A stretch of DNA of 64,000 nucleotides, taken from positions 62,001 to 126,000 of the forward strand of contig SVAZ01000001.1 in NCBI GenBank assembly GCA_015059145.1. Direction: 5' to 3'. The notes beneath the pieces are model-generated. The model ran no database searches. It was not told the origin of the DNA and saw only the letters and a program-made list of their open reading frames with translations. How positions within the stretch are numbered: the stretch's first letter is position 1; every line of letters begins with the position of its first letter. A program made the translations under genes and the position numbers. Positions 28,836-56,380 of this stretch are shown piece by piece. This DNA is from Erysipelotrichaceae bacterium. GTDB taxonomy: Bacteria > Bacillota_I > Bacilli_A > Acholeplasmatales > Anaeroplasmataceae.

Positions 28836-28866
28836 AAGGGCATTTTACTTGCCCTTTTATTTTTTT
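28836..28866 (+). terminator. Terminator after asnS
   Basis: Stem AAGGGCA/TGCCCTT with a 7-base loop, followed by T-rich sequence. Confidence 0.9.
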
Positions 28867-28942
28867 GCAACATTTGCAAGTGCTTTGCAGGATATGCAAA
28901 GTAGTTGATAAATTTCTTCAAAAAGTGTGTAAATTCATTTAC
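28865..28942 (+). promoter_or_regulatory. Cluster of inverted repeats before ABC/nuclease set 1
   Basis: Two TTGCAA words at 28865-28870 and 28874-28879 are followed by an inverted repeat CTTTGCA-N5-TGCAAAG (28883-28901). A further palindrome GTAAAT-TC-ATTTAC lies at 28929-28942, next to the promoter. They look like operators for one or more repressors or activators; the regulator is not identified. The first part overlaps the asnS terminator tail. Confidence 0.5.
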
Positions 28943-28944
28943 TT

Positions 28945-28971
28945 TTGACTATAAAATTGATAAAATATAAG
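28945..28971 (+). promoter_or_regulatory. Promoter of ABC/nuclease set 1
   Basis: TTGACT (28945-28950), a 15-base spacer and TATAAG (28966-28971). The spacer is short of the ideal 17. It directly precedes the MBL lipoprotein gene. Confidence 0.45.
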
Positions 28972-29005
28972 TGTATGGTAAAATCTAAAAATAGGGTAAT
29001 TTTTG

Positions 29006-30715
29006 ATGAGAAATATTTTAACTTCAATGCTGTTATTATTAACGATTATTATGATGGCTGGATGTGATTTAAATATCTCTATACCAGCTGATAACCCTGA
29101 TAATGATAGCCAAACTAATTTACAAGAGCAATTAAATACTGTTTTAGATAAATATAAAAATTTAGATTATATGACGGTTACTGAGGCAACTGAGGCTGTT
29201 GATTTTAATGATAAGAAATTAAATTCAACTAGAACTACTTATGTTGATCTAAATGGTAATTATTTCCATTCAGTAATTAATTGTGAAAATAAAGAGGGTA
29301 TTGTTTATAAAATAAGCAATAGCTTTTATTATAAGCTAGGTAGTTGCAGTAGCAAGGTGAATTATGATTCGTCAAGTGCTTATGGTACACTAGGATTTCA
29401 AAGTCTGTTTAATGAAACTGATTTTAGATTTAGTGATGGTAAGGCTTTGATTAATATTAGTAGTCCTTTCATAAGCAACTATTTAATTTTGTTTGACAAT
29501 GTTAATTTAGATTTTGGTACTGATTATAGCTACAACCCTTCAATACTAAGAGCCACAATAGAATTTGATGAGAATGCTATTGATAGTATTGAATTTGATT
29601 TATCCTTAGTATTCGGATCATTTTATAAAAGTGTTACTAGAACTGTAGCATTTAGTTTTGATAAATTTGAAAAGAAAGAGATAAATATTCAAGATAATAA
29701 ATATGAGGTAGAAACCGCAGATACATTAGATACCTATATTAATGAGATGGTCTATGAATTTGGTGATTCTATTTACGTTAAGTCTGGAGATTTTGACATG
29801 CTTATAGATGCAGGTCAATATCAGGATGGAGCTAATGTTAATGACATGCTAAATACATATTGTACTGATAAGACATTAGATGTTTTAATTGCTACTCATG
29901 GTCATGCTGATCATGTTGCTGGTTTTGGTGGAGGAGCCTTAAATAGCATTGATGATGTAAAGCTTATTATAGACTATGGATATGCAGATAGCTATCAAGG
30001 CTATGAACGTATAAGAGATGAATTCATTTCAGGTGGTGCTGATTACTATTCTGCATATGACTGTGTAAATATGAGAAATGGTGCATCAAAGCTATATACA
30101 TTCTCTGACGATTTATTCTTAGAGGTAATAGATACTAATCAATATTTAGAAAATGGTCATATTCTAACAGATGAAGAAAGTGATGCAGAAAATGATTTTT
30201 CTGTAGTTGTTAAATTAATGTTTAAGGATAATACTTATTTATTTTCAGGAGATTTAGCTGGAGCATTAGGTGATAGCTTTACATCCGCTTTAATGGCAGA
30301 GGGTTTAAAGGATATCACCGTTTATAAGGCTGCACATCATGGAGCTATATCTCATAATTCAAACAATCCAAATTTATTGAATTATTTAAATCCAGAAATA
30401 TGTGTTTCTTCGGCTGCAATAATAAATACAAATAATCCATTTGATCATTATGTAAATGAAAGTATGGTTTATCAGCATCCAAGAGCAACGTTTGTTAGAT
30501 GGATTTTAAATACACCTAAAATAAGTAAGAGTAAAAGGTATTATTTTAATGGTACTATGGGAACAATACATATTAGTGATAATGGGAAAGATGTTCCTAA
30601 TGTTACAGGCTTAGGACCTAAGCGTGGATATTATATGAATGGTATAAAGGTAACTAATGAGAACAATTTACCTTTTTATGAAACACAAATGTATAAAGGA
30701 TATTACTTAAGCTAA
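29006..30715 (+). CDS. ComEC-like metallo-beta-lactamase-fold lipoprotein
   Basis: A 569-residue lipoprotein (lipobox MMAGC-D). The N-terminal ~230 residues are an unrecognised beta-rich domain. The C-terminal part is a metallo-beta-lactamase fold of the ComEC/Rec2 type: MLIDAGQY, ATHGHADHVAGF near 296-307, LFSGDLAG and KAAHHGAIS. In ComEC this domain degrades DNA at the cell surface, so an extracellular nuclease or phosphodiesterase is plausible. It precedes the ABC transporter genes by 17 bases. The start is ATG 29006 (a TTG stands just before). It lacks the CCCAG cluster of its two paralogues. Confidence 0.85.
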   Translation: MRNILTSMLLLLTIIMMAGCDLNISIPADNPDNDSQTNLQEQLNTVLDKYKNLDYMTVTEATEAVDFNDKKLNSTRTTYVDLNGNYFHSVINCENKEGIVYKISNSFYYKLGSCSSKVNYDSSSAYGTLGFQSLFNETDFRFSDGKALINISSPFISNYLILFDNVNLDFGTDYSYNPSILRATIEFDENAIDSIEFDLSLVFGSFYKSVTRTVAFSFDKFEKKEINIQDNKYEVETADTLDTYINEMVYEFGDSIYVKSGDFDMLIDAGQYQDGANVNDMLNTYCTDKTLDVLIATHGHADHVAGFGGGALNSIDDVKLIIDYGYADSYQGYERIRDEFISGGADYYSAYDCVNMRNGASKLYTFSDDLFLEVIDTNQYLENGHILTDEESDAENDFSVVVKLMFKDNTYLFSGDLAGALGDSFTSALMAEGLKDITVYKAAHHGAISHNSNNPNLLNYLNPEICVSSAAIINTNNPFDHYVNESMVYQHPRATFVRWILNTPKISKSKRYYFNGTMGTIHISDNGKDVPNVTGLGPKRGYYMNGIKVTNENNLPFYETQMYKGYYLS

Positions 30716-30732
30716 TATAGGAGGAATTATAT

Positions 30733-31809
30733 ATGGAAGTAAAATTAATCAACCTTACTAAGGAATTTGTTAAGCAAGGTAGTAAAAAGAAAGCGGAGGA
30801 AAAGGTTGTAGCTGTCGATCACATTAATATCGATATTCCTGATGGAAAGCTAATTGGTTTATTAGGACCATCAGGCTGCGGTAAATCTACAACATTATAT
30901 ATGATTGCTGGTTTACATAGACCAACAGACGGACAAATCTTTTTTGGTGAAAGAGAGGTTACTGAGCTTCCTCCTGAAAGAAGAGGTATTGGCTTAGTAT
31001 TTCAAAATTATGCACTTTATCCACACTTAAGTGTTGGAGATAACATTATGTTCCCACTTCTAAGCCGCAAGGAGAAAAAGGAAGAAGCATATGAAAAGGC
31101 AATGGATATGGCAAAGCTAGTTGGTATCGAGGGCTTAATGGATCGTAAGCCTAGTCAGCTATCGGGTGGTCAGCAACAAAGAGTTGCGATTGCACGTGCG
31201 CTAGTTAAAATGCCAGAGGTATTATTACTTGATGAGCCATTATCAAATCTAGATGCTAGATTAAGATTACAAACTAGAGAAGAAATTAAGAGAATTCAAA
31301 GAACAACCGGTATTACGACAATCTTCGTAACACATGACCAAGAAGAGGCAATGAGTATTTCTGATGAAATTGTAGTTATGAACTTTGGTGTTATTCAACA
31401 AATTGGCAAGCCTCAGGATGTTTATAATGAGCCAGCTAATGAGTTTGTTGCTAAGTTCTTAGGAACTCCACCTATTAACATTATTGAAGGTGTTAATGAG
31501 GATGGAAAGCTAAAATTTGGTGATCAAATTTTAAATGAGGATTATAGCTTAGATAAGGCAAAAGAGATTCATCTTGGTATTAGACCAGAATTTATAAAGG
31601 TGGATCCTAAGGGCAAATACGAGCTAGAGGTTGAATTTGTTGAATATATCGGTAGAGATAAAACACTTATCTTCAAGCTTCAAGGTATAGATAATAAAAC
31701 ATTTAAAGCAATCGTTCCTAACAATGTTGAAGCAGAGGTAGGACAAATTGTTAAGTTTAATCTTGAAAGATACTTTATATTTGATGCGGAAGGTAGGCGA
31801 ATTAAATAA
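30733..31809 (+). CDS. CUT1-type ABC importer ATPase (UgpC/MsmK-like), set 1
   Basis: A 358-residue ATPase. Walker A GPSGCGKSTTLYM, signature LSGGQQQRVAIARAL, Walker B LLLDEPLSNLDARLRL and H-loop VTHDQEEAM are all present. The C-terminal TOBE domain (NEFVAKFLGTPPINI...) is typical of UgpC/MalK/MsmK, which serve sugars, oligosaccharides or glycerol phosphates. It is followed at one-base overlap by two permease genes and then a substrate-binding protein, so the importer is complete. A close paralogue lies at 44796. Confidence 0.93.
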   Translation: MEVKLINLTKEFVKQGSKKKAEEKVVAVDHINIDIPDGKLIGLLGPSGCGKSTTLYMIAGLHRPTDGQIFFGEREVTELPPERRGIGLVFQNYALYPHLSVGDNIMFPLLSRKEKKEEAYEKAMDMAKLVGIEGLMDRKPSQLSGGQQQRVAIARALVKMPEVLLLDEPLSNLDARLRLQTREEIKRIQRTTGITTIFVTHDQEEAMSISDEIVVMNFGVIQQIGKPQDVYNEPANEFVAKFLGTPPINIIEGVNEDGKLKFGDQILNEDYSLDKAKEIHLGIRPEFIKVDPKGKYELEVEFVEYIGRDKTLIFKLQGIDNKTFKAIVPNNVEAEVGQIVKFNLERYFIFDAEGRRIK

Positions 31810-32732
31810 TGCTAGAATGGAAAAAGGATGGTTGGAAGGCTGCAATAGCCCTAGCACCAATGCTTATCATTCTAGGAATATTCACCTTCTATCCAATAAT
31901 AAATACAATGGTGATTTCATTCTTCCCAAAATACAATTATAACTTTAATAGCTATGGAAGTTTTGGATTCACTTCATACGGAAAAGTTTTAGGAGATCCA
32001 AAGTTTTGGAATGCGTTAGGTATGACTACATTAATGGTAGTTGTATCAGTTCCATTATCTATTGCAGTATCCTTATTAATTACAGTAGTATTAAATTCTA
32101 TTAAGAAGCTACGTGGATTCTTTCAAACAATATTCTTTTTACCATATGTAACAAATGGTATTGCGTTTGGTTTAGTATTCGCAACAATTTTCTCACCTCA
32201 GCCATCAGGGCTTGTTAACACGCTTTTGAATTGGTTCGGATGTGGTCCTGTTTCTTGGACTGGGGAGGCTGCATACGTACCTGTATGGGCCGGTATTACA
32301 GTTATTACAATATATTCGGTATGGAATGGCCTTGCATTTAAGATTTTAGTATTCTTAGGTGGTATTCAAGGAATTGATAAGCAATATTATCAAGCAGCAC
32401 AAATCGATGGAGCATCAAAGGCTAGAGTATTTACAAAGATTACTTTACCTTTACTTTCTCCAATGGTTTTATATATTACTATTACATCATTAATTGGAGC
32501 CTTCAAGGCATATTCTTCAGTTGTATCATTATATGGTGAAAACATGGGTAATGGTAGTGAAGGTACATTTATGACAGCCGTAGGATATATTTATAAATAT
32601 TTTGGTACAATCCAAAAGGGTAGACCAGAAAACCTATCTATAGCCGCAGCCGCAGCTGTAATTCTGTTTGTATTCATTCTTATTATTACAGGTCTACAGA
32701 TGCTTTATAATAAGAAAAGGGTACATTACTAA
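31809..32732 (+). CDS. ABC importer permease (MalF/UgpA type), set 1
   Basis: A 307-residue membrane protein with about six helices. The cytoplasmic ATPase-contact loop reads YYQAAQIDGASKARVFTKITLPLLSP, the EAA motif of CUT1 permeases. It overlaps the ATPase gene by one base and is followed by the second permease after 11 bases. The N-terminus (WKKDGWKAAIALAPMLIILG) and the first helix FFQTIFFLPYVTNGIAFGL resemble UgpA/LacF. Substrate is unknown. Its paralogue in set 2 is at 45862. Confidence 0.93.
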   Translation: MLEWKKDGWKAAIALAPMLIILGIFTFYPIINTMVISFFPKYNYNFNSYGSFGFTSYGKVLGDPKFWNALGMTTLMVVVSVPLSIAVSLLITVVLNSIKKLRGFFQTIFFLPYVTNGIAFGLVFATIFSPQPSGLVNTLLNWFGCGPVSWTGEAAYVPVWAGITVITIYSVWNGLAFKILVFLGGIQGIDKQYYQAAQIDGASKARVFTKITLPLLSPMVLYITITSLIGAFKAYSSVVSLYGENMGNGSEGTFMTAVGYIYKYFGTIQKGRPENLSIAAAAAVILFVFILIITGLQMLYNKKRVHY

Positions 32733-32743
32733 GAGGTGATACT

Positions 32744-33625
32744 ATGCAGGATATGTACTTTAAAAATGAAAAAGAAATAAAAATATATAAGATAAAAAGT
32801 GTTATCAAGGATATAGTATTATATCTTATACTTACGTTTTTCGCATTGTTTACTTTGATTCCATTTTATTGGATGATTTCAACAGCGCTTAAATCTTCAG
32901 AAGAATTATCATTATTAAAGGCAACTCTATATCCACATCAAATAGATTGGTCAAGCTTTAAATCTGTTTTTAGTGGAGAAAATGCAATATTAATTAGATA
33001 TATGTTTAATACTCTTTTAGTAGGAACCTTAACAACAGCGATTTCTGTTTGTGTTACAGTGCTTGCAGCATTTGCATTTGCTAGATTATCCTTTAAGGGA
33101 AGAGATGTAATATTTACTATATTGCTTGCGACAATGATGATTCCTGGTGAAATGATGATTATTACTAACTTCACAACTGTTGCAGCATGGGGATGGCTAG
33201 ATTCATATACAGCCTTAATTATTCCATTTACAGCTAGTGTATTCTATACATTCTTCTTAAGACAAAATTTCAAGCAAATTCCAGATGAATTATATTATGC
33301 AGCTAAGGTAGATGGTAATTCAGACTTCAAATATTTATTTAAGGTTATGATTCCAATCGCTAAGCCTTCAATTATTACTATTACAATATTATCAATGATT
33401 GGTAGCTGGAATGCTTATATTTGGCCAAGAACTGTATCACAAGGCTACACAATGAAGCTTGTTACAGATGGTATTATGTCATTATTCTCATCAGATATTG
33501 GTAAGAATGTAGATAATCAAATCATGGCTGCAGCAACAGTAGTATCTGTACCACTACTATTAGCATTCGTTGTATTTAGAAAATATATTATGCGCGGCGT
33601 TGCTCGCTCAGGTATTAAGGGATAA
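32744..33625 (+). CDS. ABC importer permease (MalG/UgpE type), set 1
   Basis: A 293-residue membrane protein with about six helices. The EAA loop is LYYAAKVDGNSDFKYLFKVMIPIAKP and the C-terminus ends RKYIMRGVARSGIKG, as usual for MalG-type CUT1 permeases (MSGVTSGAVKG-like). It forms the transmembrane pore with the preceding permease. AGAGGTG serves as ribosome binding site. The paralogue in set 2 is at 46772, with a nearly identical C-terminus. Confidence 0.93.
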   Translation: MQDMYFKNEKEIKIYKIKSVIKDIVLYLILTFFALFTLIPFYWMISTALKSSEELSLLKATLYPHQIDWSSFKSVFSGENAILIRYMFNTLLVGTLTTAISVCVTVLAAFAFARLSFKGRDVIFTILLATMMIPGEMMIITNFTTVAAWGWLDSYTALIIPFTASVFYTFFLRQNFKQIPDELYYAAKVDGNSDFKYLFKVMIPIAKPSIITITILSMIGSWNAYIWPRTVSQGYTMKLVTDGIMSLFSSDIGKNVDNQIMAAATVVSVPLLLAFVVFRKYIMRGVARSGIKG

Positions 33626-33639
33626 AAAGGAGAAGAAAA

Positions 33640-35145
33640 ATGAAGAAAAAATTATTTGGTTTAGCACTTACTGGCTTAATGGCTGTAGGTGTAGCAGGAT
33701 TAACTTCCTGTGGTGGGTCATCAGTAGCAAATGCTGGTGAGGAATTTGAACTATTAAGCTTAGACGAAATTAAAGGCACAGATGAGCCAGTTGTTGTTGA
33801 GTTTTGGCATTCATTTGGACATAACATTGCAAATGCTCTAAACCCAATGGTTGAGTCATTTGAAGCTGAAATGACAGCTTTAGGCTACAATATAGATGTT
33901 CAAGTAACATCAACAGGTGGTGGATATGATGGTCTACGTGAAAGAGTAAATCTTGGTACTAGATCAAAATCTATTCCAACAATGATTTTAGGATACCCAG
34001 ATCATTTTGCAGATTATATTTCAAATGATATCCTATTACCATTAGATGGATTTGTAAATGCAAAGGATGCAGAAATTGCACTTGAGGGTGTTGATTTAGC
34101 TAATAATACAAATGATTTCATTCCATCTTATTGGGCTGAAAATCAATTAACTGTAAAGGGTGAAACAAAGATTTGTGGTATCCCATTTAATAAATCTACC
34201 GAAATTATGGTATATAACGCTTCATTATTAGATCCAGTTTTAGAAGAAAAAGGCTTCTTAGATCAAGATGGAAATTGGACAAATCCTACTTGGGATCAAG
34301 TATGGGAGGTAAGTGACTGGGTTTTAGATAATAAGACAGCTACTTGGACTTATAATGGTGCTCCATATGAATTAAAGGATGTTGAATATCCAGTATATGT
34401 TGATAGTGAAGCTAACTTCTTTATTACTGTTGGTCGTCAATGGGGTGGAGACGGAATGTATACTACAGTTGATGCAGCAGGTGAAGGTACAGTTGTATCT
34501 AACAACTCAACTAATAAAACTGTACAAGAATACTTCAAGGAAAAGGCAGATGATAATCTATTCCAATTCCCAGCTAAGAAGAGTCAATCATACGGTTCAA
34601 ATTTAATGCAAAATCAATCAGCAGTTATCTCAATTGGTTCAACTGCAGGTATTAATAATAATGCATCAAAGAAGTATGAGCTTAAGGCAACTGGTATTCC
34701 TCAAAAGGCATATGGTGAAAATGCAAATAACGCTGTTATTCAGCAAGGTACTAATTTAGCTATTTTATCAGCTAATTCAAATAATCAAACAAGACTTGCA
34801 GCTTGGATGCTAATCAAGTATTTAACTAATACAGAAAATACTCAATTATTCTCAAGAGAAACTGGTTATTTACCAGTTAGACAATCAGCATTAGATTCAG
34901 CTGATTACAAGGCATTCTTAAGTGCAATTAACGACCCATTCGAGGGTATGGTTGCAAGAGCAGTAAATGCAGCATTCTCTCAAAAGAATTATTTCTATAC
35001 AGACCCAGCATTCACAGGTTCATCAATTGTACGTGATTATACTGGTACATTAGTACAAGATATATTCATTTATGATAGAAGCTTTGATGATGCTATTAAG
35101 ACTTTATATGATGAATTAAATTCTTTAGATATTAAAACTAAGTAA
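33640..35145 (+). CDS. ABC importer substrate-binding lipoprotein, set 1
   Basis: A 501-residue lipoprotein (GLTSCGG lipobox) of the SBP_bac_1/UgpB group. Typical elements are VVEFWHSFGHNIANALNPMV at the mature N-terminus, GYPDHFADYI and DPAFTGSSIVRDYTGTL near the C-terminus. It captures the solute outside and delivers it to the permeases. Shared peculiar segments with the 47655 protein (YPDH, GYLPV, pAF.GS..VRD) show that the two binding proteins are paralogues. The ligand cannot be read from sequence; nearby nuclease genes suggest nucleoside, nucleotide or sugar-phosphate as candidates besides oligosaccharides. Confidence 0.9.
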   Translation: MKKKLFGLALTGLMAVGVAGLTSCGGSSVANAGEEFELLSLDEIKGTDEPVVVEFWHSFGHNIANALNPMVESFEAEMTALGYNIDVQVTSTGGGYDGLRERVNLGTRSKSIPTMILGYPDHFADYISNDILLPLDGFVNAKDAEIALEGVDLANNTNDFIPSYWAENQLTVKGETKICGIPFNKSTEIMVYNASLLDPVLEEKGFLDQDGNWTNPTWDQVWEVSDWVLDNKTATWTYNGAPYELKDVEYPVYVDSEANFFITVGRQWGGDGMYTTVDAAGEGTVVSNNSTNKTVQEYFKEKADDNLFQFPAKKSQSYGSNLMQNQSAVISIGSTAGINNNASKKYELKATGIPQKAYGENANNAVIQQGTNLAILSANSNNQTRLAAWMLIKYLTNTENTQLFSRETGYLPVRQSALDSADYKAFLSAINDPFEGMVARAVNAAFSQKNYFYTDPAFTGSSIVRDYTGTLVQDIFIYDRSFDDAIKTLYDELNSLDIKTK

Positions 35146-35156
35146 TAGGTGATTTT

Positions 35157-36698: not shown

Positions 36699-36705
36699 GG
36701 ATATA

Positions 36706-36719
36706 GGCACCAAGGTGCT
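36706..36719 (+). other. Small intercistronic hairpin
   Basis: GGCACC-AAGGTGC forms a short stem (GCACC/GGTGC) with no T run, so it is more likely a weak mRNA structure than a terminator. Confidence 0.4.
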
Positions 36720-36758
36720 TAATCAAATACAAAAATAAAAAGAGAAAAGGAGAAAATT

Positions 36759-39344: not shown

Positions 39345-39366
39345 AAAGATTATAAATTGATTAGAT

Positions 39367-39390
39367 GAGGTTAAGGACTCCTTAACCTCT
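39367..39390 (+). other. Strong hairpin between the OB lipoprotein and endA genes
   Basis: Ten-bp stem GAGGTTAAGG/CCTTAACCTC with a 3-base loop, followed by TCTTTTCCC rather than a true T run. It may act as a partial terminator, or an mRNA processing or stability element, ahead of endA. Confidence 0.6.
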
Positions 39391-39419
39391 CTTTTCCCTA
39401 TAAAATGAGGGGGTATAAT

Positions 39420-40379: not shown

Positions 40380-40400
40380 ATTTAAATAGTAATAATTATA

Positions 40401-40448
40401 AAAGGCAAAATTTGTAAAAAAACATGTTTTGCCTTTATTTATTTTTTT
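40401..40448 (+). terminator. Terminator after endA
   Basis: Stem AAAGGCAAAA/TTTTGCCTTT with a 16-base loop, followed by a long T-rich run. Confidence 0.9.
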
Positions 40449-40452
40449 TGTA

Positions 40453-40461
40453 TGATATAAT
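40453..40461 (+). promoter_or_regulatory. prs-pth promoter (extended -10)
   Basis: TGATATAAT gives an extended -10 with TATAAT at 40456-40461. The -35 area overlaps the terminator tail and is not recognisable. Confidence 0.6.
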
Positions 40462-44701: not shown

Positions 44702-44707
44702 AGATAT

Positions 44708-44743: not shown

Positions 44744-44760
44744 TAAATATTATAATTTTG

Positions 44761-44769
44761 TGATAAAAT
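44761..44769 (+). promoter_or_regulatory. Possible promoter of ABC/nuclease set 2
   Basis: TGATAAAAT gives an extended -10 form, 27 bases before the ATPase start. TATAAT at 44751-44756 is an alternative. No convincing -35 is seen. Confidence 0.35.
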
Positions 44770-44795
44770 AAATTTGTAAAATGGAGGTTTATTTT

Positions 44796-46755: not shown

Positions 46756-46771
46756 TAGAGGAGGTATTTTT

Positions 46772-47650: not shown

Positions 47651-47654
47651 AATT

Positions 47655-49052: not shown

Positions 49053-49056
49053 TATC

Positions 49057-49106
49057 TTGAAGTAGTTATTTTTTTGGTTTATAATATAAATGTATTAAAA
49101 TACATT
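49057..49106 (+). promoter_or_regulatory. Promoter with palindromic operator, set 2 secreted genes
   Basis: TTGAAG (49057-49062), a 17-base spacer and TATAAT (49080-49085) form a near-consensus promoter. An 18-base perfect palindrome AATGTATT-AA-AATACATT at 49089-49106 covers the expected start, so a repressor probably acts here. It allows the secreted proteins to be expressed separately from the transporter. Confidence 0.75.
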
Positions 49107-49124
49107 GGAAAGGAAGATAATATT

Positions 49125-51053
49125 ATGAAAAAGTTTATAGGTTTATTCTTATTTGCTGCTCTTTTCTTTTCTTTAGTTTCTTGTGGAAAGACTTATATTG
49201 TAAGTTTTGATACAAATGGTGGTAATGAAATCACTGCAGTAGAAACTGAGGATGGTAAGATAACAGCACCAACTGACCCTACAAAAGAAGGCTTTACTTT
49301 TGCTGGTTGGTATTTAGATAGTGAGTTAAAAAATAAGTTCGATTTCAATACTGAAATTGAAGCTGATACAACATTGTATGCTAGTTGGACAGCTCTTACT
49401 ACATACACTGTAAAATTTAATACAAATGGTGCTCAACCAATTGCTGATATAACTACTGATTATACTGGTAAGATAACAGCACCAAAGAATCCAGTTAAGG
49501 ATTATTATGAATTTGCTGGCTGGTATGATAATGAGGCTTTAACAGGTGAAGCTGTTAAGTTAGCTGACAAGGTATTTACAGCTGATACAGCATTATATGC
49601 AAAATGGAATATAATCGAAGTTATGGATTATGCTACATTTATGGAAGCTGAAACTGGTGATTTAGTTGCTATTGAAGGATATATATCTGCTAAGCAAAGC
49701 TGGTGGGCTAATAAGGCTACTATGTATTTAGTTGGCGATACTGATGGTGAAGGTTATTTCATTTATGAAATGGCTATGACTGAAGATGAATATAACAATG
49801 TTTATAAGATTGGTACTAAGGTTCGTATTTATGGTGCTAAGGCAAATTATGCTGGTGAACATGAAATTTCTGGTGAATACATCAATTATGATTTATCAGG
49901 TGTAATAGAAGGAGAAATGCCAGAGGCTAATCCTATTGATTTAACATATTCTGTTGATGATGAAGTATTAATCGATTATCAAAATGCTAAGTTTACTGCT
50001 ACATTAAAGGTTAAAGAGTATACTACAACAGATCAAAATGCAACTGTTGCTACAAATGGTGCATATGGATATAAGGGTGATGAGCCTACAGATGATTTAT
50101 ATTTTATTTTAGAGGATCAAGCTGGAAATGTATTAAATTGCTGCGTTGAAAAATATTTAACAAGCACATATGCTGCTGTTAAGGGAGTCCTTATGGATGA
50201 AGACTTCGCTGTTGGCAAGGTGGTTACAGTTGAAGGATATATGTATTGGTACAATGGGGCTAATCCACATATTACATCTATTACTATAACTGAACAAGAA
50301 AATATTATGTATGAAACATTTATGTCTACTCCAGATGGAGAGGATGTTGTAGTTGAAGGCTTCTTAATTGGCAAGACTACATATTATAAAGGTATGTGTA
50401 GCCTATATTTATCAGCTGCATGTACACCTAATTCAGGTGGTGAACAGGAACAAGATTATACTACTGGTGAAGGTTATTACGTGTATAATTATGAATGTAC
50501 ACAAGAACAATATAATGCATTAGTTGTTGCATGTGATTTTGAAAATCTTGTATGTCAAACTTATGTTAAGGTTTCAGGAACTAAAGCATCATATGCTGGA
50601 ATGAAGGAAATCGTTGATGCAACTGTTGAAATTATTTCAGTTCCAGAAGGTAAGATTATGGACATCATTACTGTAGATTTTGGTCCTTATTGCATAATGG
50701 TTGATGAAATTACAGAGGGCGTTATGTCTGCAGGCTTCCAAGGAAACTTTACGGTGGTTGAATATACTACAACAGATCCAAATGCAACTGTTGCTGAGAG
50801 TGGAGCATATGGCTATAAGGGTGATGATCCTACAGATGATTTATATATTATTTTAGAGGATTCAGAAGGCAATAAATTAAATTGCTGTATTGAAGCACAT
50901 CTTGATTATGAAGCTTATGGATCTGGATATAAGAATTATTTATACTCTGTAGTTGATAGCTTAACTGTTGGTCAAACAATAAGTGTTACAGGATTTATGT
51001 ATTGGTGGAATGGACCTAATCCACATATTATTTTCATTTCTACAGGAGCATAA
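49125..51053 (+). CDS. Lipoprotein with InlB repeats and duplicated OB-fold module
   Basis: A 642-residue lipoprotein (lipobox SLVSCGK). Two InlB/Flg_new-type repeats occupy about residues 25-160 (FDTNGGNEITAV...GWYLDSE; FNTNGAQPIAD). Then a module of about 220 residues occurs twice: the phrases YTTTDQNATVATNGAYGYKG and YTTTDPNATVAESGAYGYKG, each followed by LNCC[VI]E, mark the copies. Each copy starts with an OB-like region (LVAIEGYISAKQSWW; VVVEGFLIGKTTYY). No nuclease motif is visible. A cell-surface nucleic-acid- or glycan-binding role is likely. The start is ATG 49125, after GGAAAGGAAG. Confidence 0.78.
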   Translation: MKKFIGLFLFAALFFSLVSCGKTYIVSFDTNGGNEITAVETEDGKITAPTDPTKEGFTFAGWYLDSELKNKFDFNTEIEADTTLYASWTALTTYTVKFNTNGAQPIADITTDYTGKITAPKNPVKDYYEFAGWYDNEALTGEAVKLADKVFTADTALYAKWNIIEVMDYATFMEAETGDLVAIEGYISAKQSWWANKATMYLVGDTDGEGYFIYEMAMTEDEYNNVYKIGTKVRIYGAKANYAGEHEISGEYINYDLSGVIEGEMPEANPIDLTYSVDDEVLIDYQNAKFTATLKVKEYTTTDQNATVATNGAYGYKGDEPTDDLYFILEDQAGNVLNCCVEKYLTSTYAAVKGVLMDEDFAVGKVVTVEGYMYWYNGANPHITSITITEQENIMYETFMSTPDGEDVVVEGFLIGKTTYYKGMCSLYLSAACTPNSGGEQEQDYTTGEGYYVYNYECTQEQYNALVVACDFENLVCQTYVKVSGTKASYAGMKEIVDATVEIISVPEGKIMDIITVDFGPYCIMVDEITEGVMSAGFQGNFTVVEYTTTDPNATVAESGAYGYKGDDPTDDLYIILEDSEGNKLNCCIEAHLDYEAYGSGYKNYLYSVVDSLTVGQTISVTGFMYWWNGPNPHIIFISTGA

Positions 51054-51063
51054 TTATTTTATG

Positions 51064-51098
51064 AAAGGCTATGTTAAAAAACATAGCTTTTTATTTTT
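51064..51098 (+). terminator. Terminator after the InlB/OB lipoprotein gene
   Basis: Stem GGCTATGT/ACATAGC with an A-rich loop, followed by a T-rich tail. Confidence 0.85.
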
Positions 51099-51177
51099 GT
51101 CTTAAATTAATTAAATATATGTATGCTAGTTTTTATTAAAATATGTTATTATTTAAATAGAATAGGGTGTGATTATA

Positions 51178-52314
51178 ATGAAGTGGGTTACAATGTGGGG
51201 TAATGCTCAATCGACAGTATTGCCAAGCCCAGCTAAATATGCTAATGACTTAACATTAAGATATCCTATATATTGTCCACTTAGTGGAAATAAAATTAGA
51301 ATTAATCTAGATAATTATTGCTGTAATGAGGATGTTATTATTACTAAAATGTCTATAGCTAAGGGTAGTGCTTTAAATGATTATCAGGAAGATATTATTC
51401 CAGTTACATTTAATGATAAAAGAAAGGTGATTATTAATGCTCATGGTTGTGTTACTAGTGATGAAATTAATATAGATATTAAGGAAAATGATTATTTAAT
51501 AATTTCCTTATATTTAGAGGATTACACTAATCTAACATCTGGTGTTGATATTACAGGTCCATTATCAAAGGGCTATTATGCATATGGAGATCAATTAGAG
51601 GCAAGCTGTTTAGACATTAATACATCTAAGTCTACATCATGGGTATATTTTCTTGCTAATATTGATATTTATACTGATGATAATAATGAGGCTATTATTT
51701 GTTATGGTGATTCTATAACTAGTCAGGCTTGGCCTGATTATATGCAGCTAGCATTAAAGAAAAATAATATTAATAATGTTGCTGTTGTAAGAAAGGCTGT
51801 ATCTGGAACTAGAATTCTAAGACAATATGGATGCATAACATATCAATCATATGGTCTAAGTGGAAAAAATAGATTTGTCCATGAGGTATCCAGTGTTAGT
51901 GGCGCTAATAAGATTATTATTCAGCACGGGATAAATGATATAATTCATCCAGTAGGAGAGGAAGTCAATATTTTTCGACCAATGTCAGATTTACCTTCTG
52001 TAGGAGATTTAATAAATGGAATCAAATATTATCTTTCTGAATGTGAGAAAATGTCATTAAAGCCATTTTTAGGCACTTTATTACCAATTTATGGCTGGAG
52101 AACATATGCTCCGTTTAGGGAGAATTTGAAGAATGAATTTAATAATTGGATAAGGGAAATTGTTCATATCGATTTTGAAAAAGAAATTGGCGAATTAATT
52201 AATGGTGAATACCATTTTAAGGATGGCTGTGATTCGGGAGATCATTTACACCCATCTAAGTATGCTTATGAATTAATGGGTGAGCTTACAGCTCAAATAA
52301 TATTTAAGAAGTAG
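51178..52314 (+). CDS. SGNH/GDSL-type hydrolase
   Basis: A 378-residue protein. The N-terminal half is a beta-rich domain; the catalytic half has block I CYGDSITS near 176-183, block III HGINDII and block V CDSGDHLHPSKY, the full SGNH set. No signal peptide is seen, so it is probably cytoplasmic or exported by another route. Members remove acyl (often acetyl) groups from carbohydrates. ATG 51178 follows AGGGTG; a GTG nine bases earlier would overlap that site. It precedes two MBL genes by 11 bases; the link to a nucleic-acid role is not obvious. Confidence 0.88.
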   Translation: MKWVTMWGNAQSTVLPSPAKYANDLTLRYPIYCPLSGNKIRINLDNYCCNEDVIITKMSIAKGSALNDYQEDIIPVTFNDKRKVIINAHGCVTSDEINIDIKENDYLIISLYLEDYTNLTSGVDITGPLSKGYYAYGDQLEASCLDINTSKSTSWVYFLANIDIYTDDNNEAIICYGDSITSQAWPDYMQLALKKNNINNVAVVRKAVSGTRILRQYGCITYQSYGLSGKNRFVHEVSSVSGANKIIIQHGINDIIHPVGEEVNIFRPMSDLPSVGDLINGIKYYLSECEKMSLKPFLGTLLPIYGWRTYAPFRENLKNEFNNWIREIVHIDFEKEIGELINGEYHFKDGCDSGDHLHPSKYAYELMGELTAQIIFKK

Positions 52315-52325
52315 GAGGTAAGAAT

Positions 52326-53711
52326 ATGTACATAGTTAAGAAAAATAATAGTGGAGAATGGATAATTATTAAGGAGGGTGGTAAAAGAGCTACTAAGGTC
52401 TTTGATACAAAGGCCGAGGCAGTATTTTACGCTAAAGAGCACTATCCTGATGATTACGAGGTAGAAAGTGAAGTTCAGCTTGGAGAAAAAAGTATTAAAT
52501 TCAAAGCTAAAGGTAAGGTGTTTATAGCCTTAATAGCAATCCTAGTTTTAGCAATAATAGTAATAGGTATTTTAATTGCCACAGGTCATATTAAATTACC
52601 TAGTGGTAATGATTCAAAGGATACTCCAACAAATAATGCGGCTGATCATGTAGAGGGTGTTGTATACGATGATTTCCAAATGCATTTCCTTGAGCTTGGA
52701 AATGAATATACTGGAGACTCAACATATATTAAGGCAGGAGATGTTGATATCCTAATCGATGCAGGTTCAAGAAAAAATAGTGCTGTCGCAATTAAGGAAT
52801 ATGTTGATAAGTATTGTACAGATGGCAAGCTTGAATATGTTATTGCGACTCATGCACATCAGGATCATATTGCAGGATTCGTTGGATCTAAGAGTGGTTC
52901 AACAAGAACAGGTATTTTTTATCAATATGAAATAGATGTATTGATTGATTTTGCATTAACTGAGGTTACATCGGCTTTATACACAGAGGAATATGTTGCT
53001 GGTGTTGACTATTTAGTTTCAAATGGAACAAAGCATTATAAGGCTAATGAATGCTGGGATGAAATAAATGGTGCAAAGAAACAATATGCAATTACTGATA
53101 ATGTAACTATGGATATCCTATATAACAAGTACTATTTCGAGGATGCTTCAGATGAAAATGATTATTCTGTTTGTACATTATTTACTTATAATGAGAATGA
53201 AGATACACATCGTTTCCTATTAACAGGTGATTTAGAAAAGCACGGAGAAGCTGCGATGGCTGAATATTATAAGACTAATGGTGGATTAGAGCATTGTGAT
53301 TTATTTAAGGCAGGTCACCATGGCTCTGTGTCATCATCTAATGATGCATTGTTAGAGTTAATTACTCCAGATGTATGTACAGTATGCTGCTGTGCTGGTA
53401 ATCAAGAGTACACTAGCAATAATAATAATGATTTCCCTACTCAAGAATTTATTGATAGAATTGCTAAGTATACTGATGCTGTGTATGTGACATCAGTATA
53501 TGATGAAAGTGAGGATACATTTAAATCATTTAATGGTACTATTATTGTTTCATGCAAGGGCGCTGAGCTTGCTGTAGCTTGCTCAAATAACAATATAAAG
53601 CTTAAGGACTCAGATTGGTTTAATGAAACTATTTATGTAGATTCAAAGGGTAATTACTCAACAGAGGCTGATGGTGGAACAGCTGTAAAGAGAAGAATTT
53701 GGCCAAGCTAA
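52326..53711 (+). CDS. DUF2188-transmembrane-MBL (ComEC-like) fusion protein
   Basis: A 461-residue protein. Residues about 1-45 match DUF2188 (YIVKKNNSGEWIIIKEGGK...FDTKAEAVFYAKE) and face the cytoplasm. A single membrane helix lies at about 64-88 (FIALIAILVLAIIVIGILIA). Residues about 115-461 are an extracytoplasmic ComEC-type MBL domain with LIDAGS, ATHAHQDHIAGF near 174-185, LLTGDLE and KAGHHGSVSSSND. A cysteine cluster CTVCCCAG at 351-358 is unusual. AGGAGG precedes the ATG. Its sister is the lipoprotein gene 19 bases downstream. Confidence 0.87.
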   Translation: MYIVKKNNSGEWIIIKEGGKRATKVFDTKAEAVFYAKEHYPDDYEVESEVQLGEKSIKFKAKGKVFIALIAILVLAIIVIGILIATGHIKLPSGNDSKDTPTNNAADHVEGVVYDDFQMHFLELGNEYTGDSTYIKAGDVDILIDAGSRKNSAVAIKEYVDKYCTDGKLEYVIATHAHQDHIAGFVGSKSGSTRTGIFYQYEIDVLIDFALTEVTSALYTEEYVAGVDYLVSNGTKHYKANECWDEINGAKKQYAITDNVTMDILYNKYYFEDASDENDYSVCTLFTYNENEDTHRFLLTGDLEKHGEAAMAEYYKTNGGLEHCDLFKAGHHGSVSSSNDALLELITPDVCTVCCCAGNQEYTSNNNNDFPTQEFIDRIAKYTDAVYVTSVYDESEDTFKSFNGTIIVSCKGAELAVACSNNNIKLKDSDWFNETIYVDSKGNYSTEADGGTAVKRRIWPS

Positions 53712-53730
53712 ATAAAGGATGGTGAATGTT

Positions 53731-55425
53731 ATGAGATGTATTAAAAGGATTATAATAGGAATTATTCTATTATTATCATTTGGCTTTGTAACATCATGTG
53801 ATATAAATATTAAAAATCCTTTTTATAATGATAATACTAATGATAATAATGAAGAGGAAAATAAAGAGGAAAATAATGATAATTCTAAAGATTCTATAGA
53901 AGATTTAAGAAAAAGTAAATTAGCTGAAATAGATAATTTAGCTTTAAATTATAAGGAAGTAGATTATAGAGTAGATGAATGGAAAGAAATAACAACTCTT
54001 ATTCAGGATGCCAAGGATATAATTAATAATTATACAGCTAAGGAAGATGTTAATAATTATTCCGTATCTTCCTTAAAGGAAAGCTTAGATGCTGTAAAGA
54101 CAATAAAGGAAATAGAATTAGAAAGAATAAATGAGATAAAGCTTGAAATAATTAATGACATAGATGATTTAGCTTTAAATTATAATGAAGCTGATTATAG
54201 AGTAGATGAGTGGGAAGAAATAACAACACTTATTCAAAATGATAAAGCATTAGTTAATAGCTATACAGCATTTGCTCAGTTAAATAATTATTCTTTAGAT
54301 TCGCTTAAGGGTCGCTTAGATTTAATTAAAACTGATGCAGAGTTAAGAGAAGAGGAAAATAATACTCAATATGAGAATTTATCATTCCACTTTTTAGAAT
54401 TAGGCAATTATAATGCAGGAGATTGTACATTTATTAAGGCTGGAGATGTAGATATTTTAATCGATGCAGGATCTGATTTTAATTCTATTCCAGTAATAAC
54501 AAGCTATATTAATAATTATTGTACAGATGGCATATTAGAATATGTAATAGCAACGCATGCACATTTAGATCATATTGCAGGCTTTGCCCCATATAGTGGA
54601 ACAGATGGAATATTTGAATTATATGAATGTGAGGTTATCATTGATTTTGCGTTAAAGAATACTACATCTCAAGTATCAGAAAGATATATTGAAAGAAGAG
54701 ATAAGGAAATAGAGCTAGGTGCTAAGCATTACACTGCGGCTGATTGTATTAATCAAACAAATGGAGGAAAGCCTATATTTGAAATAACTGAGACTATTAC
54801 AATGGAAATATTAGACCAAAAATTTTATCATCAAGCATCATCTGATGAAAATAATTATTCAGTGTGTACACTATTTTCTCAAGGTGATAATAATTATTTA
54901 TTAACAGGAGATTTAGAGCAAGAGGGTGAAGAATCCCTAGTGGAAGAAAATGATTTACCACATTGTGCTTTATTTAAGGGTGGCCATCATGGTAGTAAAA
55001 CATCATCAAATGATTGCTTATTAGATGAGATAACTCCAGATATTTGTTGTGTTTGCTGCTGTGCAGGTACAAATGAATATACTAATATAACTGATAATCA
55101 ATTCCCAACTCAGGAATTTATTAATAGAATAGCTAAGCACACAGATAAGGTATATGTTACATCAACATGCGAATATGAAATTGCAGTAGCTACATCTGCC
55201 TCAAAGGGTATAGAGGTAGGAGATGAATATTTAAAGGCTAAGTCAGAAAAATTTAAATCATTGAATGGAAATATAATAGTTTCTACTAATAATGGTATAG
55301 TTAGTGTTAATTGTTCAAATAATAATACCAAGCTTAAGGATTCTACTTGGTTTAATACATCAATAACATTAAATGGTGTTACTAGAAAAATGAGAACGTG
55401 GCCTAACTATGGGGTGGTATCATAG
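53731..55425 (+). CDS. ComEC-like MBL lipoprotein with tandem helical repeats
   Basis: A 564-residue lipoprotein (lipobox FVTSCDI). After an Asp/Asn/Glu-rich linker come two tandem FIVAR-like helical repeats of about 80 residues, each with ALNYxExDYRVDEWxEITTLIQ. The MBL domain (about 210-564) has LIDAGSD, ATHAHLDHIAGF near 274-285, LLTGDLEQEG and KGGHHGSKTSSND. A cysteine cluster CCVCCCAG starts at residue 439. I start it at ATG 53731 (AAGGATGG upstream) rather than the ATG 12 bases earlier. It is the third MBL protein of the two sets and the second with the cysteine cluster. Confidence 0.87.
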   Translation: MRCIKRIIIGIILLLSFGFVTSCDINIKNPFYNDNTNDNNEEENKEENNDNSKDSIEDLRKSKLAEIDNLALNYKEVDYRVDEWKEITTLIQDAKDIINNYTAKEDVNNYSVSSLKESLDAVKTIKEIELERINEIKLEIINDIDDLALNYNEADYRVDEWEEITTLIQNDKALVNSYTAFAQLNNYSLDSLKGRLDLIKTDAELREEENNTQYENLSFHFLELGNYNAGDCTFIKAGDVDILIDAGSDFNSIPVITSYINNYCTDGILEYVIATHAHLDHIAGFAPYSGTDGIFELYECEVIIDFALKNTTSQVSERYIERRDKEIELGAKHYTAADCINQTNGGKPIFEITETITMEILDQKFYHQASSDENNYSVCTLFSQGDNNYLLTGDLEQEGEESLVEENDLPHCALFKGGHHGSKTSSNDCLLDEITPDICCVCCCAGTNEYTNITDNQFPTQEFINRIAKHTDKVYVTSTCEYEIAVATSASKGIEVGDEYLKAKSEKFKSLNGNIIVSTNNGIVSVNCSNNNTKLKDSTWFNTSITLNGVTRKMRTWPNYGVVS

Positions 55426-55435
55426 GAGGTATAAT

Positions 55436-56380
55436 ATGGAACATATATTAAAGAAAATTAAGGAATTTGATACTATTATTATTCATGGACATTATCGTCC
55501 GGACGGAGATTGTATTGGTTCACAATATGGATTGATGCATATTATTAATGCATCTTTTCCAAACAAAAGGGTAATAATAACTGGTGAGACAAGTGATTAT
55601 GTTTCATTTGTAGGTTCGCCAGTAATATTAGAGGATGAAGCTTTATTTGATAATGCATTAAGTATTTGTTTAGATTGTGCTACATCGGAAAGACTATCTG
55701 ATAAAAGATATGATAGAGCTAAATATTCAATTAAGATAGATCATCACATAGATGTTGAGGCTTATGGTGACTATCAATATGTAGATACTACAGCACCAGC
55801 GTGTGCACAGATTATTACTGAGTTTTATTTAAAGTTTAAGGATGAATTAGTTCTAACTAAGGAAGCTGCAACTGCTTTATACGTTGGTATTTCAACGGAT
55901 ACAGGTAGATTTAAATTTGATAGTGTTAATTCTAGAACATTTAATGCTGCCGCATTATTAGTTGATCATGGTGTAGATTTAGGGTATATTGATAATCAGC
56001 TTTCAGTTGAAACACTTGAAACATTAAAGCTAAAGGGATACTGCTTATCTAATTTTAAAACTACTGAAAATGGATTTGCCTATATAGTTATGAAAAGGGA
56101 AACTATAAATGAATTTGGTGTATCTGATGAGGATGCGGCTGCCCAGGTTTCTACTATTTCTACAATAGAGGGCTGTCCTGTGTGGGCTATATTTATGGAA
56201 TATCCTACAGAAATAAGAATAAGATTAAGATCACGTGGCCCAGTTATTAATAAGCTTGCAGAGAAATTTGAGGGCGGAGGTCATGCCAAAGCCTCTGGAG
56301 CTAGAATACATAATTGGAGTGAATTAGATAATTTTGTCTTAATGGCTGATGAATTAGTTAAGAAATTTAAATCAGAGTAA
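55436..56380 (+). CDS. nrnA: DHH-family oligonucleotide/pAp phosphoesterase (NrnA-like)
   Basis: A 314-residue DHH/DHHA1 protein without a signal peptide. DHH motifs are IHGHYRPDGDCIGSQYG, SICLDCATSERLSD and KIDHHIDVEAYG; the DHHA1 end carries FEGGGHAKASGARI. NrnA degrades short oligonucleotides and 3'-phosphoadenosine 5'-phosphate in the cytoplasm. The start is ATG 55436 after AGGAGG, overlapping nothing; upstream codons in frame belong to the previous gene's tail. Placed right after two MBL genes it could finish breakdown of imported oligonucleotides; it is also a common housekeeping enzyme. Confidence 0.93.
   Translation: MEHILKKIKEFDTIIIHGHYRPDGDCIGSQYGLMHIINASFPNKRVIITGETSDYVSFVGSPVILEDEALFDNALSICLDCATSERLSDKRYDRAKYSIKIDHHIDVEAYGDYQYVDTTAPACAQIITEFYLKFKDELVLTKEAATALYVGISTDTGRFKFDSVNSRTFNAAALLVDHGVDLGYIDNQLSVETLETLKLKGYCLSNFKTTENGFAYIVMKRETINEFGVSDEDAAAQVSTISTIEGCPVWAIFMEYPTEIRIRLRSRGPVINKLAEKFEGGGHAKASGARIHNWSELDNFVLMADELVKKFKSE

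What the first reader, a model, noticed from the sequence alone, without database searches (positions are those of the whole stretch)
28836..56380. Candidate extracellular DNA-degradation and uptake system with two ABC importers
Within about 27 kb lie two secreted nucleases with intact active sites (SNase plus OB fold, endonuclease I), three extracytoplasmic ComEC-type MBL proteins, two OB-fold lipoproteins, two complete importers, a cytoplasmic NrnA oligonucleotide/pAp phosphatase and prs. Nucleases and NrnA are known families; their joining with CUT1 importers as one feeding system is my inference. It could be a system by which the cell eats DNA and imports the pieces. The pectate lyase and SGNH gene mean a polysaccharide role for part of it cannot be excluded.
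Basis: partly seen in the sequence, partly recalled or inferred. Interest (0 to 1): 0.85.

Follow-up and report, generated by a model that had tools for sequence, protein, structure and literature searches.

The report
Nucleic-acid feeding locus with dinucleotide importers
A gut bacterium related to the mycoplasmas carries a gene cluster that appears to cut up DNA or RNA outside the cell and pull in the short pieces through two transporters that look at first like sugar importers; the same cluster, in simpler form, recurs in many other bacteria.

Summary
The window belongs to an Anaeroplasmataceae genome. Of 121 relatives, one importer locus each, 105 have SNase, EndA or NrnA within about 10 kb; in 79 named Bacillota loci SNase is the next gene after the binding protein in 69. 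Similar loci are published (Izemoplasmatales nucleic-acid-degradation loci, mycoplasma SNase-ABC operons), so the kind is known; the double importer and ComEC-like MBLs are local additions. New here is a cargo prediction: the binding protein's closest solved relative, by profile and Foldseek, is a Thermus protein crystallised with the dinucleotide UpG, though UgpB ties by VIA-align. Seven of eight residues mutated in that work fall in near-invariant columns. I read it as import of dinucleotides or short oligonucleotides, finished inside by NrnA. Phytoplasmas keep the importer beside NrnA in 27 of 27 genomes, but with an altered pocket and a tree position outside the rest. No ligand data; no pectate lyase found; prs is a bystander; OB folds of the big lipoproteins were not tested.

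The parts
29003..30715 (+). MBL1: ComEC-C-terminal-like metallo-beta-lactamase lipoprotein (listed ORF starts TTG; an ATG follows at 29006)
   Evidence: PF00753, TIGR00361 22.1 bits, below cut-off, lipobox MAGC and THGHADH
30733..31809 (+). Importer 1 ATPase, UgpC/MalK type
   Evidence: PF00005; best NCBIfam UgpC, below cut-off
31809..32732 (+). Importer 1 permease A
   Evidence: PF00528; UgpA best, below cut-off
32744..33625 (+). Importer 1 permease B
   Evidence: PF00528; UgpE best, below cut-off
33640..35145 (+). SBP1: binding lipoprotein, predicted dinucleotide/short oligonucleotide binder
   Evidence: PF13416; profile best PDB match 7c0x series 1.4e-44; Foldseek ranks 1-25 dinucleotide-binding protein; 7 of 8 mapped site residues in near-invariant columns
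35157..36698 (+). SNase lipoprotein with C-terminal beta-rich (OB-like) part
36759..39344 (+). Large aBig_2 surface lipoprotein, OB-like parts by eye
   Evidence: PF20578; proteins matching the OB/Ig-lipoprotein profile in 85 of 121 and 67 of 79 loci
39367..39389 (+). Probable terminator ending unit 1
   Evidence: 10-pair stem with T tail
39405..40379 (+). Endonuclease I lipoprotein (EndA)
   Evidence: PF04231 2e-46, lipobox ISAC, REHVWP
44781..45878 (+). Importer 2 ATPase
   Evidence: PF00005
45862..46755 (+). Importer 2 permease A
   Evidence: PF00528
46772..47650 (+). Importer 2 permease B
   Evidence: PF00528
47655..49052 (+). SBP2: second binding lipoprotein with the same site residues as SBP1
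   Evidence: PF13416; Y84, Y107, D109, S176, S297, Q338 invariant in the 15 rows of A4
49074..51053 (+). Lipoprotein with List_Bact repeats, OB-like parts by eye; lipobox C37, so a start near 49125 is likelier
   Evidence: PF09479, lipobox
51061..51094 (+). Probable terminator ending unit 2
   Evidence: 15-pair stem with T tail
51169..52314 (+). SGNH/GDSL hydrolase, role in the system unknown
   Evidence: PF00657, GDS/GIND/DHLHP motifs
52326..53711 (+). MBL2: DUF2188 head, membrane helix by eye, MBL domain
   Evidence: PF00753, PF09954; THAHQDH and GHH
53719..55425 (+). MBL3: MBL lipoprotein, ComEC nuclease-domain-like
   Evidence: PF00753; TIGR00361 1.9e-16, below cut-off; PDB ComEC 2.6e-05
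55409..56380 (+). NrnA-type DHH/DHHA1 oligonucleotide/pAp phosphodiesterase, no lipobox found
   Evidence: PF01368, PF02272; PDB NrnA 5e-68; DHH and GGGH motifs

Best explanation
A nucleic-acid feeding locus. Surface lipoprotein nucleases (SNase, EndA, perhaps the ComEC-like MBLs) cut DNA and RNA, possibly held by the large surface lipoproteins. Two CUT1-type ABC importers with UgpB/dinucleotide-type binding proteins then bring in the dinucleotides or short oligonucleotides, and the cytoplasmic NrnA phosphodiesterase splits these to mononucleotides for salvage or catabolism. Shown here: gene content, conserved linkage, catalytic residues, and the fold and site similarity of the binding proteins to a dinucleotide-binding protein. 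Inferred: nuclease activity, ligand identity, transport, the role of the lipoproteins, and the hand-over to NrnA.
For: Linkage: of 121 loci of the order, one per genome, 77 have SNase, 69 NrnA, and 105 at least one of SNase, NrnA or EndA. Of 79 named loci across Bacillota, 73 have SNase and in 69 it is the next gene after the SBP. Ligand type: the A2 profile's best PDB match is the Thermus dinucleotide-binding protein (1.4e-44), ahead of UgpB (4.9e-38). Foldseek ranks 1-25 are that protein with bound UpG, from a model of pLDDT 93.9. Of 8 residues mutated in those entries, 7 map to the 40 of 460 columns with one residue in at least 54 of 56 rows (hypergeometric 1.7e-7). The two Tyr and two Ser said to hold phosphate in UgpB, GPC and U3G binders but not in glucose binders (PMC12718374, passages) align with Y96, Y410, S186, S334, conserved in 55, 56, 56 and 56 of 56; the carry-over from that paper's numbering to E. 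coli UgpB is mine. In the one sugar-cluster SBP that aligned, E. coli YcjN, these are E, A, W, S; MalE gave no match. At Y318 and Q369 the family agrees with the dinucleotide binder, not with UgpB. No 5'-nucleotidase C-domain match in the 94.4%-complete genome. Published loci of like description are induced by DNA or DNA plus RNA.
Against: No binding, transport or nuclease data for these proteins. By VIA-align M. tuberculosis UgpB ties with the dinucleotide-binding protein (Z 35.7 against 36.1). Identity to the dinucleotide binder is about 19%. One of the eight site residues (Y246) is not conserved, and three others differ in kind (F79 to Y, N81 to D, T240 to S). Conserved pocket columns are expected in any binding-protein family, so the 7 of 8 shows a shared site, not by itself a shared ligand. 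NCBIfam, which may hold no dinucleotide-binder model, places homologues nearest UgpB (L185 97.2 bits, L208 61.5) or a carbohydrate SBP (L242 47.3), all below cut-off. NrnA is near the importer in only 69 of 121 and 17 of 79 loci, and in 0 of 12 of family f5. The genome has purC and OMP decarboxylase, so it is not plainly dependent on imported nucleotides. In mycoplasma-like genomes linkage is patchy.
Confidence: 0.62

Rival explanations
1. The importers carry nucleosides or nucleobases made outside by nucleases plus phosphatases.
For: This is the published reading for Izemoplasmatales loci (PMC8289736, section 11 read; PMC10470597, passages and section 7).
Against: The SBPs match phosphate-ester/dinucleotide binders at the phosphate-holding positions; no 5'-nucleotidase C-domain match in this genome. 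Nucleoside importers usually use other SBP families (recalled).
Confidence: 0.14
2. The importers carry glycerol phosphates or glycerophosphodiesters (UgpB function) and sit by nucleases as a general phosphorus-scavenging set.
For: UgpB is the second-best profile match and structurally tied; ATPase and permeases are nearest to UgpC, UgpA, UgpE among NCBIfam models, all below cut-off, as are the SBPs L185 and L208.
Against: At two site positions the family has Y318 and Q369 as the dinucleotide binder does, where UgpB has E254 and G306; no glycerophosphodiesterase domain hit among the 21 interval proteins.
Confidence: 0.1
3. The importers carry oligosaccharides, and the nucleases serve another purpose such as biofilm or DNA-trap escape.
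For: CUT1 family membership; an SGNH hydrolase lies in the third unit; the Izemoplasma relative zrk13 grows on many sugars.
Against: SNase follows the SBP in 69 of 79 loci; site residues differ from the one sugar-cluster SBP compared; no glycoside hydrolase or pectate lyase hit in the interval.
Confidence: 0.07
4. The locus serves DNA uptake for transformation or defence against incoming DNA.
For: MBLs resemble the ComEC nuclease domain and, weakly, MBLs of defence systems.
Against: No ComEC channel domain hit in the MBL proteins; the conserved partners are an importer and NrnA, and MBLs occur in only 18 of 121 loci.
Confidence: 0.04

Closest known systems
Nucleic-acid/DNA-degradation loci of Izemoplasmatales (Xianfuyuplasma zrk13, Hujiaoplasma zrk29, Ca. 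Izemoplasma MAGs)
   Same: Secreted nucleases beside ABC importer genes; NrnA in the zrk29 locus. My Izimaplasma locus L185 has dnaX-ybaB-recR, importer, SBP, SNase, aBig/lamin-tail lipoprotein, second SNase and two NrnA, which fits the published description; the published loci themselves were not compared by sequence.
   Different: Window has two importers, EndA and three MBL proteins, no lamin-tail hit and no PstS-type hit among the proteins scanned; it follows AsnRS, not recR. The published cargo is nucleosides or nucleobases; mine is dinucleotides.
Mycoplasma SNase-ABC operon (M. agalactiae MAG_5030-MAG_5070)
   Same: SBP lipoprotein, SNase lipoprotein, ATPase and two permeases together, co-transcribed there (PMC3585158, abstract, passages and section 13); SBP1's best NCBIfam match is the P68 surface lipoprotein family. 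A review says nuclease genes usually lie in ABC operons in mycoplasmas (PMC9740415, passages).
   Different: Gene order differs; match to P68 is far below the curated cut-off (66.7 against 200 bits).
Thermus thermophilus dinucleotide-binding protein (PDB 7c0f series)
   Same: Closest solved relative by profile and Foldseek; 7 of 8 mutated residues map to near-invariant columns. The idea of an ABC dinucleotide binder is thus already in print (FEBS J 2021, title seen in a reference list; not read).
   Different: About 19% identity; N81 is D and F79 is Y here; Y246 not kept in SBP1. Its gene neighbourhood was not examined.
UgpB-UgpAEC glycerol-3-phosphate importer
   Same: Phosphate-holding Tyr/Ser and Arg conserved.
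   Different: E254 and G306 of UgpB are Y and Q here.
Phytoplasma 'maltose' importer MalKFGE
   Same: ATPase, permeases and AsnRS beside the SBP in 26 and NrnA in 27 of 27 loci (one locus is cut by its contig). That this is the published MalKFGE is inferred: it is the only SBP place listed for G118 ('Ca. P. mali').
   Different: No SNase or surface lipoprotein label beside it in 27 of 27; Y96 is W in 27 of 27, Y318 kept in 7, Y410 in at most 1; the tree sets it outside all other importers.

Membership tests
Izemoplasmatales-type nucleic-acid-degradation locus | Secreted nucleases clustered with ABC importer | tested here: met
Izemoplasmatales-type nucleic-acid-degradation locus | NrnA in the locus | tested here: met
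   55409-56380; about 20 kb from importer 1 and in the unit after importer 2
Izemoplasmatales-type nucleic-acid-degradation locus | Phosphate transporter genes in the locus (described for several MAGs and zrk13) | tested here: not met
   no PstS-type or phosphate-transporter family hit among the 30 proteins scanned from 24724 to 61731
Izemoplasmatales-type nucleic-acid-degradation locus | Large lamin-tail protein | tested here: not met
   PF00932 hit in L185, none in the window's large lipoproteins
Izemoplasmatales-type nucleic-acid-degradation locus | Induced by nucleic acids | not testable with these tools
   needs culture or transcriptome
Mycoplasma SNase-ABC operon | SBP, SNase, ATPase and two permeases in one probable operon | tested here: met
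   29003-39344: no terminator-like match in the gaps between genes, one at 39367 after the last
Mycoplasma SNase-ABC operon | SBP of the P68/P80 family | tested here: inconclusive
   NF045826 66.7 bits, cut-off 200
Dinucleotide-binding CUT1 SBP | Same fold, nearest solved relative | tested here: met
   tied with UgpB
Dinucleotide-binding CUT1 SBP | Site residues kept | tested here: inconclusive
   7 of 8 positions near-invariant; 4 identical in kind (Y56, S127, Y224, Q274), 3 changed (F79 to Y, N81 to D, T240 to S), 1 not conserved
Dinucleotide-binding CUT1 SBP | Binds dinucleotides | not testable with these tools
   needs binding assay
UgpB | Reaches the UgpB model cut-off (411 bits) | tested here: not met
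   36.2 bits for SBP1, 27.3 for SBP2
NrnA | DHH and DHHA1 domains, closest solved proteins NrnA | tested here: met
NrnA | Reaches the NCBIfam NrnA cut-off (350 bits) | tested here: not met
   NF053633 242.8 bits; the two Izimaplasma copies in L185 score 241.8 and 229.8
ComEC | Membrane channel plus nuclease domain | tested here: not met
   MBLs match only the C-terminal part, below cut-off

The most novel reading that the evidence does not exclude
A widespread class of ABC importers of the 'sugar' CUT1 family, recognised by its site signature and by a neighbouring SNase and/or NrnA, is a dedicated dinucleotide/oligonucleotide uptake system for feeding on nucleic acids across Bacillota. The phytoplasma 'maltose' importer, the only sugar ABC importer reported in 'Ca. 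P. mali', is its reduced relative and would supply the nucleotide precursors for which no phytoplasma transporter is known. (Lowered from 0.40 to 0.36 on re-reading: the tree speaks more clearly against simple descent in phytoplasmas than I first wrote.)
Probability: 0.36. Interest if true: 0.82.

Novelty: new variant of a known kind. Interest (0 to 1): 0.62.

Why it matters
By the models at hand these importers look like glycerol-phosphate or sugar transporters, and the papers I saw treat the linked ones as nucleoside, nucleobase or nucleotide transporters. If the cargo is dinucleotides, the place of NrnA in these loci becomes plain, hundreds of species genomes could be re-annotated by a simple signature (535 relatives in one pattern scan), and a published gap becomes testable: phytoplasmas lack nucleotide synthesis and any known nucleoside transporter, while their 'maltose' importer has no catabolic pathway (PMC3322544 and PMC2459194, passages).

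Tried and rejected
Rejected: pectate lyase (no hit); prs/pth as members (separate unit); a DNA-only diet (SNase is usually sugar-nonspecific, recalled, and the Thermus ligand is RNA); strict nucleotide auxotrophy.

Against my phytoplasma reading: in the four-gene tree of 64 importers the 52 non-phytoplasma importers form one clade (support 1.0 as printed, after rooting on a single distant outgroup, E. coli ugp), leaving the 11 phytoplasma ones outside. Long-branch attraction is possible but was not tested; the case for orthology rests on gene order.

Mycoplasma-like genomes gave mixed results (positions only): the 4 f8-g31 genomes have an SBP match but no PF00565 match and no NrnA within 20 kb; in G185 an NrnA pair lies about 1 kb from the SBP match but the SNase is on another contig; in G174 an SNase lies about 11 kb away and NrnA is not near; G158 and G180 have no SBP match. 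The class sample (94 of 149 genomes with an SBP match at 1e-10) was not examined for linkage, as no more letters could be had.

Papers: searches (mycoplasma locus tags or gene names) found nothing. Searches (12 papers listed; one, PMC12718374) showed no paper on an oligonucleotide-importing ABC feeding system as far as listings and the passages I opened tell. PMC4221730, PMC8603345 and PMC12115388 were seen in passages and add little. Alignment A3 was pointless and unused; one of eight proteins was an SBP sent by mistake. Recalled, from no call: SNase catalytic roles, NrnA activity, the OY-M genome size, wall-less nature of the family.
Full report
What is there. The window is G000:C22:62001-126000 of a 1.43 Mb, 34-contig genome, 94.4% complete. 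Contigs of relatives in its genus and family have the lengths of records named Ca. Avacholeplasma faecigallinarum, uncultured Anaeroplasma sp. and uncultured Anaeroplasmataceae, and G065 of the same order that of Acholeplasma oculi, so I take the order as Acholeplasmatales and the family as Anaeroplasmataceae. The 21 interval genes I list are on the + strand. Terminator-like stems follow AsnRS (28836), the aBig lipoprotein (39367), the Na/Ca exchanger gene (43295), the repeat lipoprotein (51061) and tRNA-Gln (56605). I read three probable units: MBL1-ATPase-permease-permease-SBP1-SNase-aBig lipoprotein; ATPase-permease-permease-SBP2-repeat lipoprotein; SGNH-MBL2-MBL3-NrnA. EndA stands after the first. 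Promoter-like matches were no more common than in shuffles (76 against 100, 86 against 85), so unit borders rest on stems and spacing.

Is the grouping more than chance? I searched SBP1 in 150 genomes of the order; 121 have a match. I fetched up to 20 kb round the best match of each (for the window a slice of the same size; contig ends cut some) and labelled ORFs of 80 aa or more with profiles seeded from the window and extended on loci L031-L090, with bit thresholds set by hand. Of 121 loci: SNase 77, surface OB/Ig-type lipoprotein 85, NrnA 69 (two or more copies in 38), EndA 18, MBL 18, AsnRS 85; any of SNase, NrnA, EndA 105. Of the 16 misses six lie on contigs under 10 kb. Choosing loci by SBP does not favour nucleases. 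By group: SNase 32 of 39 in the window's family f1, 36 of 42 in f3 without g23, 8 of 12 in f5, 1 of 1 in f4, 0 of 27 in g23; NrnA 15 of 39, 27 of 42, 0 of 12, 0 of 1, 27 of 27. The window itself counts as a miss for NrnA there, since its NrnA lies outside the slice. Among 19 second-copy loci SNase occurs in 1 (L064, the full cluster of G066, whose better match is on a short contig), and 10 of 19 carry permease and SBP labels without an ATPase label. A scan of named genomes gave 535 relatives, the best 80 kept as 79 loci; with somewhat lower thresholds, SNase is in 73 and is the next kept ORF after the last SBP in 69, lipoprotein 67, NrnA 17, MBL 11, EndA 10. Record titles include Acholeplasmatales, Izemoplasma, Haloplasma, Erysipelotrichales, Clostridia, Oscillospiraceae and Christensenellaceae; some genomes are in both sets (for example L169 is G087).

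Core and additions. The conserved core is ATPase-permease-permease-SBP-SNase-lipoprotein, with one or two NrnA genes in part of the lineages. EndA and MBL are additions of the window's family in the main (15 and 18 of the 18 loci each). The two importers are not a recent duplication: the SBPs are 29% identical and the importers fall in different parts of the tree.

Nucleases. Pfam scores the window's SNase weakly (no hit at 0.001, 21.8 bits); of 7 homologues scanned 6 score 34 to 50 bits and the nearest, L169, 18.1, under the cut-off. The profile of 33 matches S. aureus nuclease at 5e-25. D83, D85, T86, R117, E125, R174 and the lipobox Cys are invariant; D122 is D in 22 and N in 11 of 33. The model (pLDDT 89.0) matches staphylococcal nuclease over about 190 columns.

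Cargo. A profile of 56 SBPs (A2) was compared with all PDB sequences: best is the Thermus thermophilus 7c0 series (1.4e-44), then UgpB (4.9e-38 and 8.9e-38 for the E. coli entries). The SBP1 model (pLDDT 93.9) has that Thermus protein at Foldseek ranks 1-25, titled as a dinucleotide-binding protein with endogenously bound uridylyl-3'-5'-phosphoguanosine. VIA-align gives Z 36.1 (2.6 A, 382 residues) for it, 35.7 for M. tuberculosis UgpB, a tie, and 33.8 or less for sugar binders. Eight residues are mutated in those entries: Y56, F79, N81, S127, Y224, T240, Y246, Q274. They map to Y96 (55 of 56), Y119 (56), D121 (56), S186 (56), Y318 (54), S334 (56), N340 (not conserved), Q369 (56); 7 of 8 fall among 40 near-invariant of 460 columns. 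That these eight line the ligand is inferred from their being mutated; the paper was not read. A conserved pocket is expected in any such family, so this shows a shared site; the positions that tell the dinucleotide binder from UgpB are Y318 and Q369 (E254 and G306 in UgpB), where the family sides with the former. PMC12718374 (passages only) states that two Tyr and two Ser hold the phosphate in UgpB, GPC and U3G binders and not in glucose binders; aligned to E. coli UgpB these are Y96, Y410, S186, S334 (the mapping from the marine UgpB numbers to E. coli is mine). Controls: the A2 profile scores the Thermus protein 153.7, UgpB 134.3, YcjN 46.0 bits, MalE no match; YcjN has E, W, A at Y96, S186, Y410. 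In the 93 other non-phytoplasma best-place SBPs of the order D121, S186, S334, Q369, Y410 and R465 are kept in 93 of 93. SBP2 keeps the signature too. By NCBIfam the SBPs look nearest to UgpB, P68 or a carbohydrate SBP, all far below cut-off.

Fate inside. NrnA is nearest to solved NrnA proteins (5e-68) though below the NCBIfam cut-off; NrnA degrades short oligonucleotides and pAp (recalled). The genome holds purC and OMP decarboxylase matches, three SBP_bac_8 proteins, two of them here, and no 5'-nucleotidase C-domain match.

Known relatives. Izemoplasmatales: DNA-degradation loci with nucleases and ABC importers, growth on DNA and up-regulation (PMC8397711, passages; PMC8289736, passages and section 11); zrk29's locus includes NrnA, a nucleoid-associated protein, RecR and ABC transporters, with three genes up about 27-fold on DNA plus RNA (PMC10470597, passages and section 7). 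L185 shows that make-up, with dnaX-ybaB-recR. Mycoplasmas: SNase next to SBP and ABC genes, co-transcribed in M. agalactiae (PMC3585158). So the kind is known, and a dinucleotide-binding ABC protein is known in Thermus; joining the two into a cargo prediction for these loci, and their reach, is what I add.

Phytoplasma link. g23 genomes are phytoplasmas: G118's contig is 601,943 bp and G055's 706,569 bp, the sizes printed for 'Ca. P. mali' AT and AY-WB (PMC2459194, passages). Their loci read AsnRS-ATPase-permeases-SBP-NrnA, most followed by a protein of about 455 aa, identified as MnmE in L078, some with a second NrnA. MnmE also follows the window's cluster at 59653. The literature calls this importer maltose or ugp-like with unclear substrate, and reports no nucleoside transporter or membrane nuclease (PMC3322544, PMC2459194, passages). 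Site residues in 27 genomes: Y119 and D121 27 of 27; S334, Q369, R465 26 of 27; Y96 is W in 27; S186 is T 14, S 11, N 2; Y318 kept in 7; Y410 in at most 1, gap in 9. The tree sets phytoplasmas outside the 52 others with support 1.0. So the phytoplasma cargo may have shifted, and descent from the nuclease-linked importer rests on gene order alone.

Verdict. Nucleic-acid feeding: I hold this at about 0.85. Dinucleotide or short oligonucleotide cargo given that: about 0.7.

Noticed in passing
27196-27400: T-box leader (96.4 bits) upstream of AsnRS; an AsnRS-like gene lies within about 10 kb of the importer in 85 of 121 loci.
   Followed up: partly
26328-26699: GerQ spore-coat protein gene (PF09671) in a genome from a family whose cultured members are described as wall-less (recalled).
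   Followed up: no
24456-25833: HipA-like kinase gene with a short upstream ORF, possibly a toxin-antitoxin pair.
   Followed up: no
L053, L054, L158-L165: Ten of 19 second-copy loci hold permease and SBP labels without an ATPase label, so they may share the ATPase of another importer.
   Followed up: partly
window importer 1, 30733-35145: In the tree importer 1 groups with 2 of 13 family tips and Izemoplasma-like ones, while 10 of 13 family tips lie elsewhere: perhaps an in-place replacement beside AsnRS.
   Followed up: partly
L212, L217, L235, L243: In these Clostridia loci an EndA-like gene lies upstream of the ATPase, so EndA may have joined the cassette more than once.
   Followed up: no
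57913-59616: Large protein with several weak Ig-like domain hits between the cluster and mnmE.
   Followed up: no
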